From the IMG/VR virus record IMGVR_UViG_3300017989_000265, positions 1 through 34,820 of that record: a stretch of 34,820 nucleotides of DNA; one strand, written 5' to 3'. Positions 3,404 through 32,303 of the stretch are shown here, one piece after another. The position numbers and the translations under genes are program-made. Each line of letters opens with the position of its first letter. Within the stretch, counting starts at the first letter, position 1. This stretch comes from a virus. The notes under the pieces were generated by a model. It was given only the letters and a program-made list of their open reading frames with translations, was not told the origin of the DNA and ran no database searches.

Positions 3404-4795
3404 CTAAAAGGGTGGATCGTCAAAGTCTCGATTTGGTTCGATTCCTTTGTCGGGTGATTCCGGTGAAGTGTATTCGTTAAAGTCGCTAAAGCGTGTCGTT
3501 TCCGCGTGCCACCTTAGTTGCACCGTGTCGGTCATCCCTGCGCGGTTCTTTCCAATAATTATTTCGGCAATGCCTGCGGTGGGCGATCCATCGGCAAATT
3601 GTGTGATGCCATTCTGTTCGGGGCGGTTTACGAGTTCGATCACATCCGCATCCTGTTCAATCGCACCGCTATCCCTTAAATCGGAAACCATAGGGCGCTT
3701 ATCTCCACCGCGCTGCTCTACACCCCTATTGAGTTGAGACAATGCCACCACAGGCACGTCAAGCGCCTTAGCGAGTAGTTTTAGGCTTCGGCTAATGGTT
3801 GACACTCTGTCCTCTTTGTTGTAGCCGGATGACCCCACCAGTTGAATGTAGTCCAGGTAGATAATGTCGCACTTCTTTTGCATCTTCATTCGCCTTGCAA
3901 TCGTTAAGATGCTTGTAAGGTCAAATGCCTTGTCAAAAATATGAAGGTTGCTCTTTTCAAGTTTGCCGAGTGCGGTGTCAAACTTTGACCAGTCATCCGT
4001 TGACAGGTTCCCAAATTTAATCTTTGATGCGTTGACACCACTTTCTGCGGATGCAATTCTTTTTAGTAATTGCCCCGCTGACATTTCGAGGGAGAAAATC
4101 ACAGAGTGGTAGTGCTGCCACACGCTTTGTCGGTGCGCTTGTGATAGCACGTATGCAGTTTTACCCATAGCAGGCCGACCGCCTACAATGATTAAATCTG
4201 TTTGTTGCCTGCCACCGTAGATGTTGTCAAGGGTTGGCATTCCGGTTGGTATGCCTGTAATACCTTTTTGCTCGGATGCCCTTACAACTTCATCGCGGAT
4301 TTGCGCTGCGAGGTCTTTAATAGATGGTGCTTGATTTGACTTGATGTTAGACAGCATCTCCACCTGCATCTGAGTGATAAACTCGTCTATCTCAAAAGGG
4401 TCATCCCCTGCCTCTATGCTTTGCTGTATCTCTTGGGATAGTTTTAGTTGGGCGCGTTTAATGCGAAGTTCTTCGAGGATTCTCGCGTGGCGCTGTGCGT
4501 TGGCCGTTCCTGCGACTTTGTTTGTGAGTTGGCTGATGTAGTACACCCCATTTTCGCCATCTTGGTCGAGTGCTTCTAACTTGGATGTCTTTTTAAGTTG
4601 ATCCGTAACGGTTACAAGGTCGATAGATTCACCTGCTTCAACAAGTTGCTGAATGGCGTTAAATATTGTCCTGTTGCGGTACTCGTTGAATGATTGCGGC
4701 TGCAAGATGTCAACAACCGCGTAGCACGCATCGGGGCTGATAAGCATCTGCCCTAATACAATTCTTTCGAGGTCGCTGTCGGCGGGGTATTTCAT
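3404..4795 (-). CDS. dnaB: Replicative DNA helicase, DnaB type
   Basis: 463 aa from ATG 4795; a TTG seven codons upstream is in frame but lies inside the preceding gene's end. The N-terminal domain starts with DLERIVLGQMLISPD, as in DnaB. The RecA-like core has Walker A GGRPAMGKT, Walker B-type IIYLDYIQLV, the SQLNR motif and IIGKNRAG. It unwinds the fork 5'-3' during phage replication and would recruit primase. The preceding gene, 8 bases away, looks like the phage initiator/loader, matching a replication cassette. It is the last gene of its run; promoter P3 lies immediately downstream for the next operon. Confidence 0.95.
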   Translation of the reverse strand: MKYPADSDLERIVLGQMLISPDACYAVVDILQPQSFNEYRNRTIFNAIQQLVEAGESIDLVTVTDQLKKTSKLEALDQDGENGVYYISQLTNKVAGTANAQRHARILEELRIKRAQLKLSQEIQQSIEAGDDPFEIDEFITQMQVEMLSNIKSNQAPSIKDLAAQIRDEVVRASEQKGITGIPTGMPTLDNIYGGRQQTDLIIVGGRPAMGKTAYVLSQAHRQSVWQHYHSVIFSLEMSAGQLLKRIASAESGVNASKIKFGNLSTDDWSKFDTALGKLEKSNLHIFDKAFDLTSILTIARRMKMQKKCDIIYLDYIQLVGSSGYNKEDRVSTISRSLKLLAKALDVPVVALSQLNRGVEQRGGDKRPMVSDLRDSGAIEQDADVIELVNRPEQNGITQFADGSPTAGIAEIIIGKNRAGMTDTVQLRWHAETTRFSDFNEYTSPESPDKGIEPNRDFDDPPF

Positions 4796-14324: not shown

Positions 14325-14983
14325 AAGGCTTCTACCCGAATACCCCTAAGACATGGAACCGCATTTCATGGGTAATGCGAAAAGGCGGCTACAAACACGC
14401 GCTGCGCTTCTATTGGGAAATAGCGACCATCTGCAAATGCGATAACACTATTCCCGGCATTAATCAACATTGCCGCGATTTGTCAAAGTCAAACGTGGAA
14501 AGGTGCTTTAAAAAGGCATTCGGCTACGGTTCATTTGTCGATCCATCATCGACGGGAAAGGCTGTAATAAAATCAGAAACAAACGCCGCGCACGATGGGG
14601 CTGTTGTTAATCTACCTTTTAAACTTAAAGAGGGTCAGGTCTGTCAAAAGTATCTGCCCTCGACTGTCGAGCATCGGGTGTTAATCATTTGGGGTGAACC
14701 TGTATGCGTTCTCGTGAAGCATTTAGAGCGACAATTTGCCGACAAATGCCGAATGAAATACGCCGAGTTGGGTGAGATATTTAACAGCGAAACACGGCGA
14801 CAAATAACAACCTTTGCGGAGTGCTTGGGGATGGATTATGGGGAACTTGATTTAATAAAGCACGATGGTAAGTGGTACATTATTGACGCGAACCAATGCC
14901 CTGGGTATAACGCCTCGTTATTTGATATGCCAGAATCAGACCAAATGAAATTCGTAAATTCGCACAAATCATTATTTGAATGA
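14321..14983 (+). CDS. ATP-grasp-like ligase
   Basis: 220 aa. The C-terminal motif GELDLIKHDGKWYIIDANQ places D177, D189 and N191 in the Mg-ATP pattern of ATP-grasp enzymes (peptide and amino acid ligases, among others). GKAVIKSETNAAHDGAVV near residue 90 and the region QKYLPSTVEHRVLIIWG fit the earlier nucleotide-binding strands. Such enzymes join a carboxylate to an amine or similar via an acyl phosphate. The acceptor is unknown. It is coupled by 4-base overlaps to the genes on both sides. Confidence 0.6.
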   Translation: MKGFYPNTPKTWNRISWVMRKGGYKHALRFYWEIATICKCDNTIPGINQHCRDLSKSNVERCFKKAFGYGSFVDPSSTGKAVIKSETNAAHDGAVVNLPFKLKEGQVCQKYLPSTVEHRVLIIWGEPVCVLVKHLERQFADKCRMKYAELGEIFNSETRRQITTFAECLGMDYGELDLIKHDGKWYIIDANQCPGYNASLFDMPESDQMKFVNSHKSLFE

Positions 14984-15429
14984 AAGTAGTAGGAATAGGA
15001 TTGCCAAAGACAGGCACAACAACCTTAAAGAAGGCACTCGAAATACTTGGGGTTGAGCATGAAGTTGGCGATCACGTCCATCTATACAATGAAACCCCCA
15101 AAGCAGACATCTACATTCTGACCGTCCGAGAAAGCGTTGACACATGGTTTGACAGCGTAAAGCGGTGGGATAAGATAGTAGGAAACAGACCTGAAATAAG
15201 GGTGCAAAGGTTGCGGATGTATGGCAGCGACACGCCAAACGAATCATGGAAAAGTAAATACGAAAAGCACGCCCGCAAGTGGATGAAGTCAAAGGATAAA
15301 ACCGTTGAATTAATGTGCTGGGATTGCGGTCAAGGGTGGGAGGACTTGTGTGCAGTATTAGGTTTGCCAATTCCTAAAGTGCCATTCCCGCACGCTAACA
15401 AAAACACACGATATGCGAAAGGTGCTTAA
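14980..15429 (+). CDS. Sulfotransferase-like P-loop protein
   Basis: 149 aa. PKTGTTTL at 9-16 matches the 5'-phosphosulfate loop of PAPS-dependent sulfotransferases, and LTVRESVDTWFDSV (R50, S59) fits the 3'-phosphate-binding segment. The end has WEDLCAVLGLPIPKVPFPHANK, a common sulfotransferase C-terminal pattern. It is short for the family (usually 200-300 aa), so it may be a minimal or diverged member. It would move sulfate from PAPS to a hydroxyl, for instance on a sugar. Starts by 4-base overlap. Confidence 0.7.
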   Translation: MKVVGIGLPKTGTTTLKKALEILGVEHEVGDHVHLYNETPKADIYILTVRESVDTWFDSVKRWDKIVGNRPEIRVQRLRMYGSDTPNESWKSKYEKHARKWMKSKDKTVELMCWDCGQGWEDLCAVLGLPIPKVPFPHANKNTRYAKGA

Positions 15430-16055: not shown

Positions 16056-16400
16056 ATGGCACAATGCAGCCCATGCGGGCAATTTAAAGACGTGTACCAA
16101 TGCGGTGCTGAACTAAACATCGGCACAGTACCCGCAGGAACTTACATTGTAATGATTACCGATCTAACGAGCGGCTTTAGGAGAATAGTTAGCAAGGTGC
16201 TTGCAAGCAAGGATGTAATAAGCGTAAACATCAGCGACCTTGCAACAGATCACACCTACCGGATAGAGGTTGAGGTGGCATCCACACAAGCAAACCAACC
16301 CTTTGACATTGACGGCACAGATTACACGTGTGGGGAGTTTGTGATACGGCAACTCGAAGGGGATGCGCCAGACGAACAGAACCTAATCCCTAAAGCATGA
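16056..16400 (+). CDS. Hypothetical beta-rich, possibly virion-associated protein
   Basis: 114 aa. The Cys-containing start (MAQCSPCGQFKDVYQCG) and later strands (GTYIVMITDLTSGFRR, TYRIEVEV, CGEFVIRQLEG) suggest a small beta-sandwich of the kind used as capsid or tail decoration. It sits in the late operon and overlaps the membrane protein gene by 4 bases. Not recognised as a family. Confidence 0.55.
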   Translation: MAQCSPCGQFKDVYQCGAELNIGTVPAGTYIVMITDLTSGFRRIVSKVLASKDVISVNISDLATDHTYRIEVEVASTQANQPFDIDGTDYTCGEFVIRQLEGDAPDEQNLIPKA

Positions 16401-16696
16401 CACTCCTTAAGATTGTCATAATGAGCCTGACCTGTTTTGGCGCATTGCGGGCTATCAACACATTTCTTTGGAAGATTAAAGGTGTAGGGTTAGATGACAT
16501 CGAGCCGGACTTTTCAAAGTGGGAGCAATTTATCCTATCCCCTGTACTCTTTTGCGTGTACTGCACAGCGAGCTTTTGGGGGTCTTTGGCATACCTGGGG
16601 ATGGCAGCCAGCGGTTACGGGTTTAGCCTATTCGAGTGGCTTATTTGCGTCATTGCAACCTGTGGATTAAATGAGATAATCGAACGCAACACATGA
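16397..16696 (+). CDS. Small membrane protein
   Basis: 99 aa with about three hydrophobic segments (near 2-18, 45-70 and 76-92). FCVYCTASFWGSLAYLG contains CxxC next to a membrane segment, reminiscent of small phage and bacterial membrane proteins with a C-x-x-C-x-x-x-W pattern. A holin role is possible but not supported by anything else here. It overlaps both neighbours by 4 bases. Confidence 0.6.
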   Translation: MTLLKIVIMSLTCFGALRAINTFLWKIKGVGLDDIEPDFSKWEQFILSPVLFCVYCTASFWGSLAYLGMAASGYGFSLFEWLICVIATCGLNEIIERNT

Positions 16697-17349
16697 ACCT
16701 TTTCTACAAACTATTTTACAAAGGCTTTCTAAAGTACCACGAGGGGCATAAGCTCACTAAAGACGATTTGGTATATGCCTTTACAGACTTTGAAGGCAAC
16801 CGCTACTTTACATGGTCTGACAAGGGGCAAATCCCAAAGGTGCGTTATGACCGCTTAATGGAACTTACTATTTGGTGGGAGGCGAGGGTTGCACCCGAAA
16901 CAGTTGACCGAATGGCAGACGGCATAATTGAGGCTGCTGAACTATCCCTAACAGGTGAAAAGCCAGAAGACCGCAGCAAGATGGTAAGCAAGGTTATTGT
17001 ACTGGCTAATGAGTTGAAGTTGCGCAAGGAGAATGGCTTGCCGCAGGTCATTGCAAACGAAATGGCGGCTGTTTGGGCAATCCGTGAGGATGAAGACCCC
17101 GAAGTGATTAACAACCAAATTCACGAGGAAAAGGTCGATATGTTTGCACATGAAACTGCAATGGGTCGCAACTTTTTTTTTCGGCTGCCGAGGCTGATGA
17201 AACATTTAGATTTGTGGCGGGTGTCCAGAAACGAATTGAGGAAACTGTTCGCGGAATCGGAGACAAAGGAAAAGCGGATGGACTTGGTGATGAAGCAAAT
17301 TTTGTCAGACTTCTCATCCGAAACTACCATAGGGGGCAGCGGTCAATAA
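16693..17349 (+). CDS. Tail assembly chaperone, zero-frame product
   Basis: 218 aa. It lies just upstream of the tape measure, the standard place for the G-type chaperone that coats the tape measure during tail assembly. The sequence is helical and charged (TKDDLVYAFTDFEGNRYFTWSDKGQ, then KMVSKVIVLANELKLRKENGL). A run of nine T's (17173-17181) read as TTT TTT TTT gives a classic T-TTT-TTT slip site; the overlapping -1 frame continues 105 codons to 17498. Function assigned by position and slip site. Confidence 0.65.
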   Translation: MNLFYKLFYKGFLKYHEGHKLTKDDLVYAFTDFEGNRYFTWSDKGQIPKVRYDRLMELTIWWEARVAPETVDRMADGIIEAAELSLTGEKPEDRSKMVSKVIVLANELKLRKENGLPQVIANEMAAVWAIREDEDPEVINNQIHEEKVDMFAHETAMGRNFFFRLPRLMKHLDLWRVSRNELRKLFAESETKEKRMDLVMKQILSDFSSETTIGGSGQ

Positions 17350-17498
17350 TTTCAGAAATAAGCGACGATATAGAGAAAACCTATCGTCAATCAATTTTGA
17401 ATTACTTATCTTTGTTGCGAAAATTCGCAAACCATGCCCGAAGACATCAGACAGCGGCTAATACTGGACGTTCAAAAAACAATCGACGATCTAAATAA
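16693..17498 (+). CDS. Tail assembly chaperone, predicted -1 frameshift product (gpGT-like)
   Basis: Joined frames: 163 codons to the slip at 17176-17181, then the -1 frame from TCG at 17181, about 268 aa in total. The extension begins SAAEADETFRFVAGVQ and is hydrophilic and helix-prone, as real protein should be, ending in a basic tail (RSKNNRRSK). It overlaps the tape measure start by 65 bases. In phage lambda the longer GT protein binds the tape measure. Not proven by sequence. Confidence 0.55.
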
Positions 17499-20400
17499 GA
17501 TTATCGGTAAGACTGAGCAGCTTGGCACAGAAGTCAAAGAAACAGGGCAGGATGGTAGTCGCGCGATGGGTGACTATGCTACGGCACTTCAAAAGGCAGA
17601 GCGTGCAAGCAGATCACTCGAAAAGACAATCAACGAACAGGAACGGCTGACGAATGAATGGCGGCAGGAGCTTGTTCAGGTTGAACAGCAGCAAAAGAAT
17701 GTAGGGCGTGGCAGCCGCGAATACTTCCGTTTGCAGAAAGCCCAAAAAGACCTCAACAGGGCAATCAAGGAGAATGTACGCGACATTAAAGGTCTGCGCT
17801 TAGACAAGCGTGCTATTGACAGCAACATCCGCGACCTAAAGCGACAGGGGAAAGCCTTTGATGACACCCGCAAAAAGACCAACGCATTTGGGCGCGCTGT
17901 TAAGAATGTCGGTCGGTTCTTGCTTGCTGCATTTGCTGTTGATAGAATTATCTCGTTTGTCCGTTCCACGGTGCGTGCCATCGAGGAGTACCAAAGCGCG
18001 GTATCTGAACTAAGGGGAATCACCCAGGCAACAGACGAGGAGATTGAAAGCCTGACAAAGACGGCGCGCGAATTTGCAAAGACATCACAGTTTACGGCCA
18101 CACAAGTTGTCAAAGCACAGACCGAGCTTGCAAAGTTAGGGCGAACAGTTGACCAAATTAACGCCACAACCGAAGCGGTATTACTTTTAGCAACAGCCGC
18201 CGGAACAGATGTAGCCAATGCCGCAGAAGTTGCCGCCCAGGTGATGAACCAATTCGGGATTGAAAGCGAAAAGGCAGGCGAAGTAACAGATGTTTTAGCG
18301 CGGTCATTCACCAGTTCAGCACTTACCATTGATCGCTTTCAGGGCGCATTTAAGCAGGTTGGTACAACAGCCAACACCGTGGGTGCATCACTTGAAGAAA
18401 CAACCGCGGCGATTAGCGCGCTTGTTGACGCTGGTATCCCTGCTGAAAAGGCAGGCACAGACCTTCGCAACATTTACATAGCACTTGCAGAGGAGGGGTT
18501 AAGCTGGAACGAGGCACAGGAATTGCTTTTAAACAGCACCGACAAACTTTCAACCGCAACGGATCTGTTTGGCCGCCGTTCCGGTGCAGCGGGTATTGTC
18601 TTGGCAGAGCAAGCGCAAAAGATAGCCGATTTAACGGTCGCATATCAGAATGCAGAAGGCGCAGCGTCAGACCTTTCAGAGGCACAGTTGGACAATCTGA
18701 AAGGGGATAGGCTCATTCTTGCATCCAATTGGGAGGAGTTTATTTTGAGTGTTGAGGAGGGGACGGGGGTAGTAAGTGGTTTTTTGCGAAAATTCACACA
18801 AGCAGAGACGGAGATAGTAAAAGGTCTTAAAAATGTCACGAGAAGTGTGGATGATGTTAATGAATCCTACTCGAAAGGCATACTGGGGCGGCTTGATGAG
18901 GCAAATGAAGAAAGTAATTTCTTTGTTCAGCAATTGAAGTATTTTAATCTTTTATCGGATGGCGTTGGTGTGGTAGCAGAAGGGGAGCAAATCGTTAGAA
19001 AGTTGGCAGGAGCAACGGTGGAGATAACTGATGATTTGTTGATTTTAAACAAAGGCACTTCTGAAGAGGTTAAAAATAGAATAGACCTGCTAACAACAGA
19101 GCAAGCAAGGCTTCAAACCATATTTGCTGAAAATGACAAAATTGTTGATTTAGAAGTTAGGAAACTATTCCTGCAAGGCGATATAACACAAAAGCAGCGA
19201 GACAACCTTTTAGCCGTAAGAGGCACACTCGAAGAGCGCAGAAAGCTGTTAGAACAAATTGAAAAGGAAAACGGCCAATACACTAAGCAGGTTAAAATAA
19301 CTAAGGAGCTGCTAAAAGTAGAAGCCGAAAGAGTTGGTTTAGGATTGGCTACCGCGGAGCGAAATGCCACAATACTACTCGATCAACTCCGTGCAGAGTT
19401 AAGCGCAACAGAAAAGGCATTAGCAGCAAAAGAGGCAGCCAATGATGCGGATGTGCGCGGAAGGGAGCGTCTAAAGAAACGCATTGAGGAAATCAATTTA
19501 GAGATTATCCGAAGCGAGTTACAAGTGGCGCAGGCTCGTGAGGATGCAAAGCGTGAAGAAATAGCCCTGTTGCAGCGCATCACAGATAAAACCCCTGCTA
19601 TCCGCGCCGAAATAATACAGGCACAGACGGAGCTTGTGGGGCTTTCTCGTGCGGTGGATGACTTGCTTTTGAAGTGGGCAGAGGGCAATATAACAGACAT
19701 AGCTCTTAACCCTAATTTGGCTGGTGAAATAAATTTCTCAGAGGGCATTGAAAGCGAGACAGAGCAGATAGAGGAGGCTGTTTTAGGAATGAATGAGAGG
19801 CTGCAAGTGTCTTATCGGGAGTGGGCAGATCGAGTTATCGAAATATACAATGAATTAAAAGACACTGGAATAACAACACAAGAGGCTATTGCGATGGCTA
19901 ACAAAGAGTATAGCGCACAGATACTCCAAAACACCTTAGCGACCGCATCGGCAACTTTAAGCGCATTTGGAAGCGTGTTTGGTGGTATAGGTCAATTGCT
20001 TGGCGAAAGTGCCAAACAAAGCAAGGAGTTAACCTTATTTCAAATACTTTTACAAACAGCGGCAGGTATTGCCAATGCAGTAGCGCAAGCGCAGACAATA
20101 CCGCCACCTGGTAACGTGGCTGCTGTTGCAACTGGTATAGCATCTGTGCTTAGCGGAATTGCGCAGGCCAGAAGCTATTTACAACCAACACCATCCTTTA
20201 GCAATCCCACCGTGCAGGGGTTCGCAGAAGGTACGCCATATTTAAAGCGTGCAGGCGCACCAAAAGGTAGAGATACTATACCTGCCATGCTCGATGAGGG
20301 GGAGGCTGTTATACCAACTAAGCGAAACAAAGAAGCGCCTGGACTTGCAGCGGCATGGATTAGCGGGAATTTAGATGAGTGGGTGAATAGTTACGGTTTT

Positions 20401-20574
20401 GAGCAGCGCGTGAACAATATGCGTGTTGTTCATGTATCCAACAACAGCAACACATCCGCTTTAGACGATCACAGAATGGTCAATAGGTTGAGCCGTTCGG
20501 TTGACTTGCAACGCGAAACACTATATGAAATTCGCAAATTCAATAAATTCTCATCACGTAAACGCGCAGGTTAG
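17434..20574 (+). CDS. Tape measure protein
   Basis: 1046 aa. The N-terminal ~130 residues form coiled coil. Residues about 210-400 hold the TP901-type tape measure core (TKTAREFAKTSQFTATQVV, TEAVLLLATAAGTDVA, LARSFTSSALTIDRFQGAF, AISALVDAGIPAEKAGTDLRN). A long helical region follows, with a hydrophobic AGIANAVAQAQTIPPPGNVAAVATGIASVLSG, and then the common AEGTPYLKR...DTIPAMLDEGEAVIP tail motif. It sets tail length: about 1.5 angstrom per residue would give roughly 150 nm. Start chosen at the ATG after the overlapping chaperone frame. Confidence 0.9.
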   Translation: MPEDIRQRLILDVQKTIDDLNKIIGKTEQLGTEVKETGQDGSRAMGDYATALQKAERASRSLEKTINEQERLTNEWRQELVQVEQQQKNVGRGSREYFRLQKAQKDLNRAIKENVRDIKGLRLDKRAIDSNIRDLKRQGKAFDDTRKKTNAFGRAVKNVGRFLLAAFAVDRIISFVRSTVRAIEEYQSAVSELRGITQATDEEIESLTKTAREFAKTSQFTATQVVKAQTELAKLGRTVDQINATTEAVLLLATAAGTDVANAAEVAAQVMNQFGIESEKAGEVTDVLARSFTSSALTIDRFQGAFKQVGTTANTVGASLEETTAAISALVDAGIPAEKAGTDLRNIYIALAEEGLSWNEAQELLLNSTDKLSTATDLFGRRSGAAGIVLAEQAQKIADLTVAYQNAEGAASDLSEAQLDNLKGDRLILASNWEEFILSVEEGTGVVSGFLRKFTQAETEIVKGLKNVTRSVDDVNESYSKGILGRLDEANEESNFFVQQLKYFNLLSDGVGVVAEGEQIVRKLAGATVEITDDLLILNKGTSEEVKNRIDLLTTEQARLQTIFAENDKIVDLEVRKLFLQGDITQKQRDNLLAVRGTLEERRKLLEQIEKENGQYTKQVKITKELLKVEAERVGLGLATAERNATILLDQLRAELSATEKALAAKEAANDADVRGRERLKKRIEEINLEIIRSELQVAQAREDAKREEIALLQRITDKTPAIRAEIIQAQTELVGLSRAVDDLLLKWAEGNITDIALNPNLAGEINFSEGIESETEQIEEAVLGMNERLQVSYREWADRVIEIYNELKDTGITTQEAIAMANKEYSAQILQNTLATASATLSAFGSVFGGIGQLLGESAKQSKELTLFQILLQTAAGIANAVAQAQTIPPPGNVAAVATGIASVLSGIAQARSYLQPTPSFSNPTVQGFAEGTPYLKRAGAPKGRDTIPAMLDEGEAVIPTKRNKEAPGLAAAWISGNLDEWVNSYGFEQRVNNMRVVHVSNNSNTSALDDHRMVNRLSRSVDLQRETLYEIRKFNKFSSRKRAG

Positions 20575-31250: not shown

Positions 31251-32303
31251 ATGTCATACGTTGATAATGCGTTGGTTGCCTGTGCAAACCTGCAAACCAA
31301 CTTAGATAACGCCTTTACGACGGGCGAGCTTGTGCGCGACAAAATTCCCGCGCTCGAAGCAATTACGTCGTATCAACACCCTATGCGAATGCTCAACTCA
31401 CCTGGAGGTGGTAAAGAGCGTAAGGTAGAGGTGATTTACCAACAGCGACTTCAAGAAAGTTCTGTGGCAGAGGTTAATGAGCGCGGATGTACCGCGACGG
31501 CTAAGCCTGCTGAATTGTCTACTGTTTACGAAATGACCGGGCCAATTCAGGAGACAGCCACCCTGTTTACAGCTTCGCACTTGAAAGATTCTTGCCGCGA
31601 TAATGGCGAGGTATTCGCAACAGAGATTGCGCGAATGCTGAACGCTATGCGCCGCAAAATTGCCACACAAGTAACAGGCGAAGTTTCGCTTTTGTCTGGT
31701 AATTGGAGTACCGATGTAACTGTAAATGCTAACAACGCTTACGAGGTTGCAACGCAAAAGGCTAATGGCGACTGGGATCCCGAAGCACTCGTTGACATCA
31801 ACATCGCTGCACGCGATTTGACCGAGTACACTGGTGATTACATCGTCGTTGCAAACTCCGATATGTGGAAGTACTTGAAGATGATTGAAATCGGTTGCTG
31901 TGCAAACGATGGTATCGACCTTCGGGAGACTTTCGATATGTACGGACTTGCGGCCATGTACGACAGCCGAATGGCAACCGCTATGGCTGCTGTTGATGCG
32001 GATGCTTTCCTTATCAACATCGGATCGGTACAACTGCTGAACTATGTAGAAGCCCCTTGGTTGGATGGTACGCCTGTTGGCGAACCTTTCCGAGGTGCTA
32101 CATACATTTCGCAGGTGTTCACCGACCCTGTTACAGGTCTTTTGATGGAACTTACAGTGAAAGATGAGTGTCGCGGAAAAGCGCACGTAATTCTTAACGC
32201 ACAAGTTCAATCTAAGGCTTTGCCTTCTGACTTGTTTGCTTCTGGCGACAAATATGAAGGGGTGAATGGTATCAACAAGATTGCCATTTCTAACCCCTAC
32301 TAA
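31251..32303 (+). CDS. Major capsid protein
   Basis: 350 aa. An alpha/beta sequence without signal or membrane parts. It is preceded by the scaffold and portal genes and followed by a terminator-like hairpin, as expected for the abundant capsid subunit. The central region (EVATQKANGDWDPEALVDINIAARDLTEY) and the end (RGKAHVILNAQVQSKAL) fit the HK97-type capsid layout. The 115-base leader has no obvious promoter box. Confidence 0.85.
   Translation: MSYVDNALVACANLQTNLDNAFTTGELVRDKIPALEAITSYQHPMRMLNSPGGGKERKVEVIYQQRLQESSVAEVNERGCTATAKPAELSTVYEMTGPIQETATLFTASHLKDSCRDNGEVFATEIARMLNAMRRKIATQVTGEVSLLSGNWSTDVTVNANNAYEVATQKANGDWDPEALVDINIAARDLTEYTGDYIVVANSDMWKYLKMIEIGCCANDGIDLRETFDMYGLAAMYDSRMATAMAAVDADAFLINIGSVQLLNYVEAPWLDGTPVGEPFRGATYISQVFTDPVTGLLMELTVKDECRGKAHVILNAQVQSKALPSDLFASGDKYEGVNGINKIAISNPY

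What the first reader, a model, noticed from the sequence alone, without database searches (positions are those of the whole stretch)
17170..17498. Probable -1 frameshift at nine T's in the tail chaperone gene
T(9) at 17173-17181, read in frame as TTT TTT TTT, precedes a -1 frame open for 105 codons with protein-like composition; the next gene is the tape measure. This is the gpG/gpGT layout, with a homopolymer slip site rather than the more usual mixed heptamer.
Basis: partly seen in the sequence, partly recalled or inferred. Interest (0 to 1): 0.5.

Follow-up and report, generated by a model that had tools for sequence, protein, structure and literature searches.

The report
Nine-T frameshift site before tape-measure gene
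A phage gene next to its tail-length ruler carries a run of exactly nine T's that distant relatives all keep, which most likely lets one gene make two proteins with different ends, probably because the enzyme copying DNA into RNA stutters there.

Summary
T9 (17173-17181) is read TTT TTT TTT in a 218-codon gene; the -1 frame stays open 105 codons past it; the next gene is a tape measure. The gene has no Pfam/PHROG name, so "tail chaperone" rests on place and layout.

It is not an error. All 13 homologous genes found (window included) carry exactly T9 at the same place, a 0-frame tail of 48-63 codons and a -1 frame open to about the tape-measure start, so the stretch is coded twice.

The run occurs in two codon phases (NNC TTT TTT TTT; NNT TTT TTT TTR), yet its length stays nine: probability about 9e-4 or less over six lineages even if a T_TTT_TTN heptamer is required. 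No consistent RNA stimulator was found. This fits RNA-polymerase slippage better than ribosomal slippage, which is not excluded because U_UUU_UUU is in phase in all 13. Programmed frameshift: about 0.95; transcriptional slippage as main mechanism: about 0.68. My literature searches listed no tail chaperone expressed that way.

The parts
16693..17349 (+). 0-frame product, 218 aa (gpG-like), directly before the tape measure
   Evidence: homologues in 12 other contigs; homology runs through the T run in frame 0 (tblastn E 2e-9 to L050)
17173..17181 (+). T9 slip site
   Evidence: exactly T9 in 13 of 13 members, two codon phases
17181..17498 (+). -1 frame extension, 105 codons (gpT-like tail)
   Evidence: open in 13 of 13; a profile of the other 12 -1 tails ranks this ORF first of 164 window ORFs, but only at E 0.072
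17182..17349 (+). doubly coded stretch (0-frame tail of 55 codons and -1 frame)
17434..20574 (+). tape measure protein, 1046 aa; its first 65 nt overlap the -1 frame

Best explanation
The gene at 16693-17349 makes two proteins. Most copies are the 218-aa 0-frame product; a minority share the first 163 residues and continue for 105 residues in the -1 frame, ending just inside the tape-measure gene. The switch is at the T9 run. The most likely mechanism is programmed transcriptional slippage: RNA polymerase adds one U (or drops two) while copying the nine T's, and ordinary translation of that mRNA yields the -1 product. By analogy with lambda gpG and gpGT the two proteins are inferred to be tail assembly chaperones acting on the tape measure, the run length setting their ratio. 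Shown here: the T9, its conservation, conservation of both frames, the position. Inferred: that both proteins are made, slippage by the polymerase, chaperone function.
For: 13 of 13 members keep exactly T9 although the window protein is only 11-25% identical to them. T9 occurs 14 times in 173,460 nt of these contigs, 13 of them here, against 3 T8 and 1 T10. The run sits in two codon phases, NNC TTT TTT TTT in 5 and NNT TTT TTT TTR in 8, and the wobble base before it is C in 5/5 and T in 8/8, which keeps the length at nine. Members that normally prefer TTC and CTN still use TTT TTT TTR here, e.g. L131. Probability of exactly nine: 1.8e-6 given amino acids alone, 9e-4 (T_TTT_TTY) or 4e-4 (T_TTT_TTN) if a ribosomal heptamer is required, over six lineages; 1.7e-6 and 5e-7 over nine. 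No consistent RNA stimulator: 2 of 13 downstream stretches have z of -2.5, the window 0.09. A-run examples from other tape-measure lineages vary in length from 6 to 9. [quoted passage not shown] a U run acts this way in Shigella mxiE, and in spa13 slippage gives a C-terminal extension that overlaps the start of the needle-length gene spa32 (PMC5009743, passages; PMC1088944).
Against: No RNA or protein data. U_UUU_UUU, an efficient -1 heptamer type in E. coli (PMC4066793, passages), is in phase in 13 of 13, so ribosomal slippage would also work. Slippage should also yield +1-frame mRNAs; +1 stops are near (7-28 nt) but no nearer than background (Fisher p 0.33). The upper bound (avoidance of T10) rests on C at the wobble in 5 sequences of 3 lineages and is weak alone. 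The window's own -1 tail is only weakly similar to the others. Chaperone function has no sequence or fold support.
Confidence: 0.68

Rival explanations
1. Programmed -1 ribosomal frameshifting at U_UUU_UUU within the T9, as in lambda gpG/gpGT.
For: The heptamer is in phase in 13 of 13; U_UUU_UUY motifs are efficient in E. coli (PMC4066793, passages); other lineages' tape-measure neighbours show heptamers such as A_AAA_AAC; lambda-type shifting is ribosomal (PMC5009743, passages).
Against: The two T's outside the heptamer are also kept (9e-4 or less under this model); codon phase moved while length did not; no consistent stimulator.
Confidence: 0.27
2. Indel artefact or a true frameshift mutation in a gene that is really one frame.
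For: Homopolymers are error-prone; codon usage switches frame at the run.
Against: 13 of 13 contigs have the same T9 and both frames; homology continues in frame 0 through the run.
Confidence: 0.01
3. Phase-variable contingency run, switched by DNA replication slippage.
For: A T9 run can mutate in length (general knowledge; no data here).
Against: No T8 or T10 form among 13; both frames are conserved together.
Confidence: 0.02
4. The -1 frame is not expressed; only the 218-aa protein is made and the overlap is chance.
For: The window's -1 tail is weakly similar to the others.
Against: -1 frame open in 13 of 13 up to near the tape-measure start; probability 0.02 or less in 12 of 13 given the 0-frame protein; after the 0-frame stop the differences of the closest pair follow the -1 codon (L124/L125: 1, 0, 6 at positions 1, 2, 3).
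Confidence: 0.02

Closest known systems
Lambda gpG/gpGT tail assembly chaperones (programmed -1 ribosomal frameshift)
   Same: Gene directly before the tape measure, -1 shift, longer product ending at about the tape-measure start.
   Different: T9 in place of GGGAAAG (lambda motif recalled, from no call); slip site 147-192 nt before the 0-frame stop with a conserved 0-frame tail; mechanism probably transcriptional; no sequence or fold match.
Shigella spa13 and mxiE transcriptional slippage (PMC5009743 passages; PMC1088944 passages)
   Same: Slippage in transcription gives a C-terminal extension; in spa13 it overlaps the start of a length-control gene; mxiE uses a U run.
   Different: Type III secretion genes of a bacterium, not a phage tail; no homology was tested.
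Thermus thermophilus dnaX (A9 transcriptional slippage; PMC1088944 passages)
   Same: A nine-base run sets the ratio of two products.
   Different: A run rather than T run; the shifted product is the shorter one.

Membership tests
gpG/gpGT-type frameshifted tail assembly chaperone | Gene lies directly upstream of the tape measure gene | tested here: met
gpG/gpGT-type frameshifted tail assembly chaperone | -1 frame opens at a slip site in the 0-frame gene and runs to near the tape-measure start | tested here: met
   13 of 13 open; in the 12 with a called tape-measure start the -1 frame ends from 28 nt before it to 65 nt inside it
gpG/gpGT-type frameshifted tail assembly chaperone | Sequence or fold relationship to a known tail chaperone | tested here: inconclusive
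   no family for the window protein, best E 0.0089 in one other member; no Foldseek match at E 0.001; helical-bundle level only
gpG/gpGT-type frameshifted tail assembly chaperone | Both products made; they bind the tape measure and tail tube protein | not testable with these tools
   Needs protein work
Programmed transcriptional slippage | A or T run of nine or more in the coding strand | tested here: met
Programmed transcriptional slippage | Run length conserved independently of codon phase | tested here: met
Programmed transcriptional slippage | mRNA of mixed run length | not testable with these tools
   No RNA data
Programmed -1 ribosomal frameshift | X_XXY_YYZ heptamer in the 0 frame | tested here: met
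   T_TTT_TTT in 13 of 13
Programmed -1 ribosomal frameshift | Conserved downstream RNA stimulator (usual, not required) | tested here: inconclusive
   2 of 13 with z near -2.5, the rest above -1.1; pseudoknots not searched

The most novel reading that the evidence does not exclude
A family of tailed phages makes its tail-chaperone pair by RNA-polymerase slippage at an exactly nine-base T run instead of by ribosomal frameshifting, and codes two alternative C-termini of that protein in the same DNA.
Probability: 0.65. Interest if true: 0.65.

Novelty: new variant of a known kind. Interest (0 to 1): 0.55.

Why it matters
Tail chaperone frameshifting is a textbook case of ribosomal recoding. A lineage that obtains the same two-product outcome from the polymerase, with the run length fixed at nine while the codon phase moves, would show that the ratio can be set at transcription, as in type III secretion needle-length genes. 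It could also be overlooked by tools built to score ribosomal slip motifs. A simple reporter and cDNA sequencing would decide it.

Tried and rejected
Direct searches for relatives of the gene, the tape measure, the distal tail protein, the 31251-32303 protein and the portal-like protein as single queries in viral contigs found none; the gene in genome contigs and in phage records found none (also 52 and 53 with relatives' proteins in phage records). A two-sequence tape-measure alignment worked, then A4 and A6. A profile of the 0-frame family found nothing in 395 Bacteroidota genomes (no positive control among them), so the host is not settled. Fold searches gave no usable match; the -1 tail model is poor (pLDDT 58.5, three helices). 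Enrichment of near +1-frame stops: null. Sequencing error, phase variation and chance overlap were rejected on the 13 of 13 conservation. One search printed shifted-frame ORFs in wrong frames; they were ignored and redone. Dropped rows: L115 and L121 (same contig as L050), L117 (L056), L118 (L059), L119 (L077); L126 starts downstream of the run, so it was not counted for T9.

Full report
WHAT IS THERE. The window is a 34,820-base virus record. T9 at 17173-17181 lies in frame as TTT TTT TTT in an ORF from ATG 16693 to 17349 (218 aa). The -1 frame is open from 17154 to 17498, 105 codons past the run. The next gene, 17434-20574, is a tape measure; its top matches in phage records include Flavobacterium, Bacteroides, Cellulophaga and Polaribacter phages. 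Neither the 218-aa protein nor the -1 tail matches Pfam or PHROGs.

CODING IN BOTH FRAMES. A codon-usage score trained on the other genes of the window changes from frame 0 to frame -1 at about 17170; after the run both frames are intermediate (0 frame -0.048, -1 frame +0.079; in-frame mean +0.18, out-of-frame -0.18).

RELATIVES. Single-protein searches found none (tape measure against phage records, found only distant ones). A tape-measure alignment with a Flavobacterium phage (A2) brought 80 viral loci, two of which encode a homologue of the 218-aa protein at E below 1e-3 (L050 2e-9, L056 2e-6), aligned straight through the run in frame 0. Two more scans and a profile search of stop-to-stop ORFs gave 13 distinct contigs, window included: W, L050, L116, L056, L059, L077 (cut at its 5' end), L124, L125, L131, L120, L123, L122, L127. 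Five further rows are second copies of these contigs. L126 has only a -1 tail and begins after the run.

THE RUN. All 13 have exactly T9 at the homologous place. In five (W, L124, L125, L123, L122) it reads NNC TTT TTT TTT; in eight NNT TTT TTT TTR. The 13 contigs (173,460 nt) hold 14 T9 runs, 13 of them this one; T7 11, T8 3, T10 1. Given the amino acids and each contig's codon usage, exactly nine has probability 1.8e-6 over six lineages; if a slippery heptamer T_TTT_TTY (or T_TTT_TTN) is required as well, 9e-4 (4e-4); treating as separate three further rows from pairs whose third positions differ by 0.63-0.66, 1.7e-6 (5e-7). The lineages are my grouping from protein similarity; trees place long branches such as W and L127 insecurely, and whether the phase changed once or more is open.

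THE -1 FRAME. It is open in 13 of 13, and where a tape-measure start could be called (12) it ends from 28 nt before that start to 65 nt inside it. The 0-frame stop lies 147-192 nt after the run. Randomising synonymous codons of the 0-frame tail leaves the -1 frame open with probability 0.02 or less in 12 of 13 (0.083 in L127); the reverse test gives 0.05 or less in 7 of 13 (range 0.005-0.50), so the evidence that the 0-frame tail is kept is uneven. Among 10 pairs compared, position differences go from 0-frame periodicity upstream to mixed in the shared stretch; after the 0-frame stop the -1 periodicity is clear in some pairs (L124/L125, L059/L131) and not in others (L050/L056). A profile of the other 12 -1 tails ranks the window's -1 ORF first of its 164 ORFs, but weakly (E 0.072).

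MECHANISM. A programmed -1 shift is well supported. Two routes fit: ribosomal slippage on U_UUU_UUU, in phase in 13 of 13, and polymerase slippage on T9. Length kept while codon phase moves, T's kept at synonymous sites outside the heptamer, and lack of a consistent downstream RNA structure (2 of 13 with z near -2.5) favour the polymerase. Null or contrary: +1-frame stops are not unusually near; U_UUU_UUY is efficient in E. coli (PMC4066793, passages). As comparison, 123 of 162 distinct loci have an overlapping frame pair before the tape measure, most in the -1 direction (some of these pairs are chance, and a few contigs appear twice); in 12 A-run examples that I picked the run is 6, 7, 8 or 9 bases and the 0-frame stop 3-40 nt after it.

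FUNCTION. Chaperone function is inferred from place and layout. A model of the 0-frame protein from A7 (pLDDT 77, pTM 0.71) is mostly helical and matches nothing usable.

LITERATURE. Lambda G-T shifting, its 30:1 ratio, and spa13/spa32: PMC5009743, passages. Nine-base threshold, dnaX and mxiE: PMC1088944, passages. Poly-A/T clusters, Tn n>8 for transcriptional realignment, and a 6-7% shift in an HK97-like tail chaperone: PMC3711429, passages. PRFect: PMC10885494, passages. Searches listed no paper that reports a tail chaperone expressed by transcriptional slippage (seen as listings and abstract openings, with passages of the papers named here and of PMC2853527, PMC6149199, PMC7660901, PMC10299305 and PMC4615864); the library lacks most subscription journals.

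VERDICT. Real, conserved, and a new variant of a known kind.

Noticed in passing
L023/L071 6433, L030 881, L052 6285: Other tape-measure lineages carry A9 runs at a -1 frame switch before the tape measure, e.g. AAT AAA AAA AAA TAA with the 0-frame stop right after the run; these may be separate slippage sites.
   Followed up: partly
window 14980-15429: A protein matching Pfam Sulfotransfer_4 (E 3e-21) between terminase and tail genes; unusual phage cargo.
   Followed up: no
window 12327-33924: Gene order is unusual: terminase and tail genes (tape measure 17434) come before the portal-like gene (27105).
   Followed up: no
window 16397-16696: 99-aa hydrophobic protein directly before the frameshift gene, with a homologue upstream of it in L050 (E 1.2e-7).
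   Followed up: no
L173 and L175, about 4475-4760: Other lineages with long (229-286 nt) -1 overlaps before the tape measure but no run longer than five.
   Followed up: no
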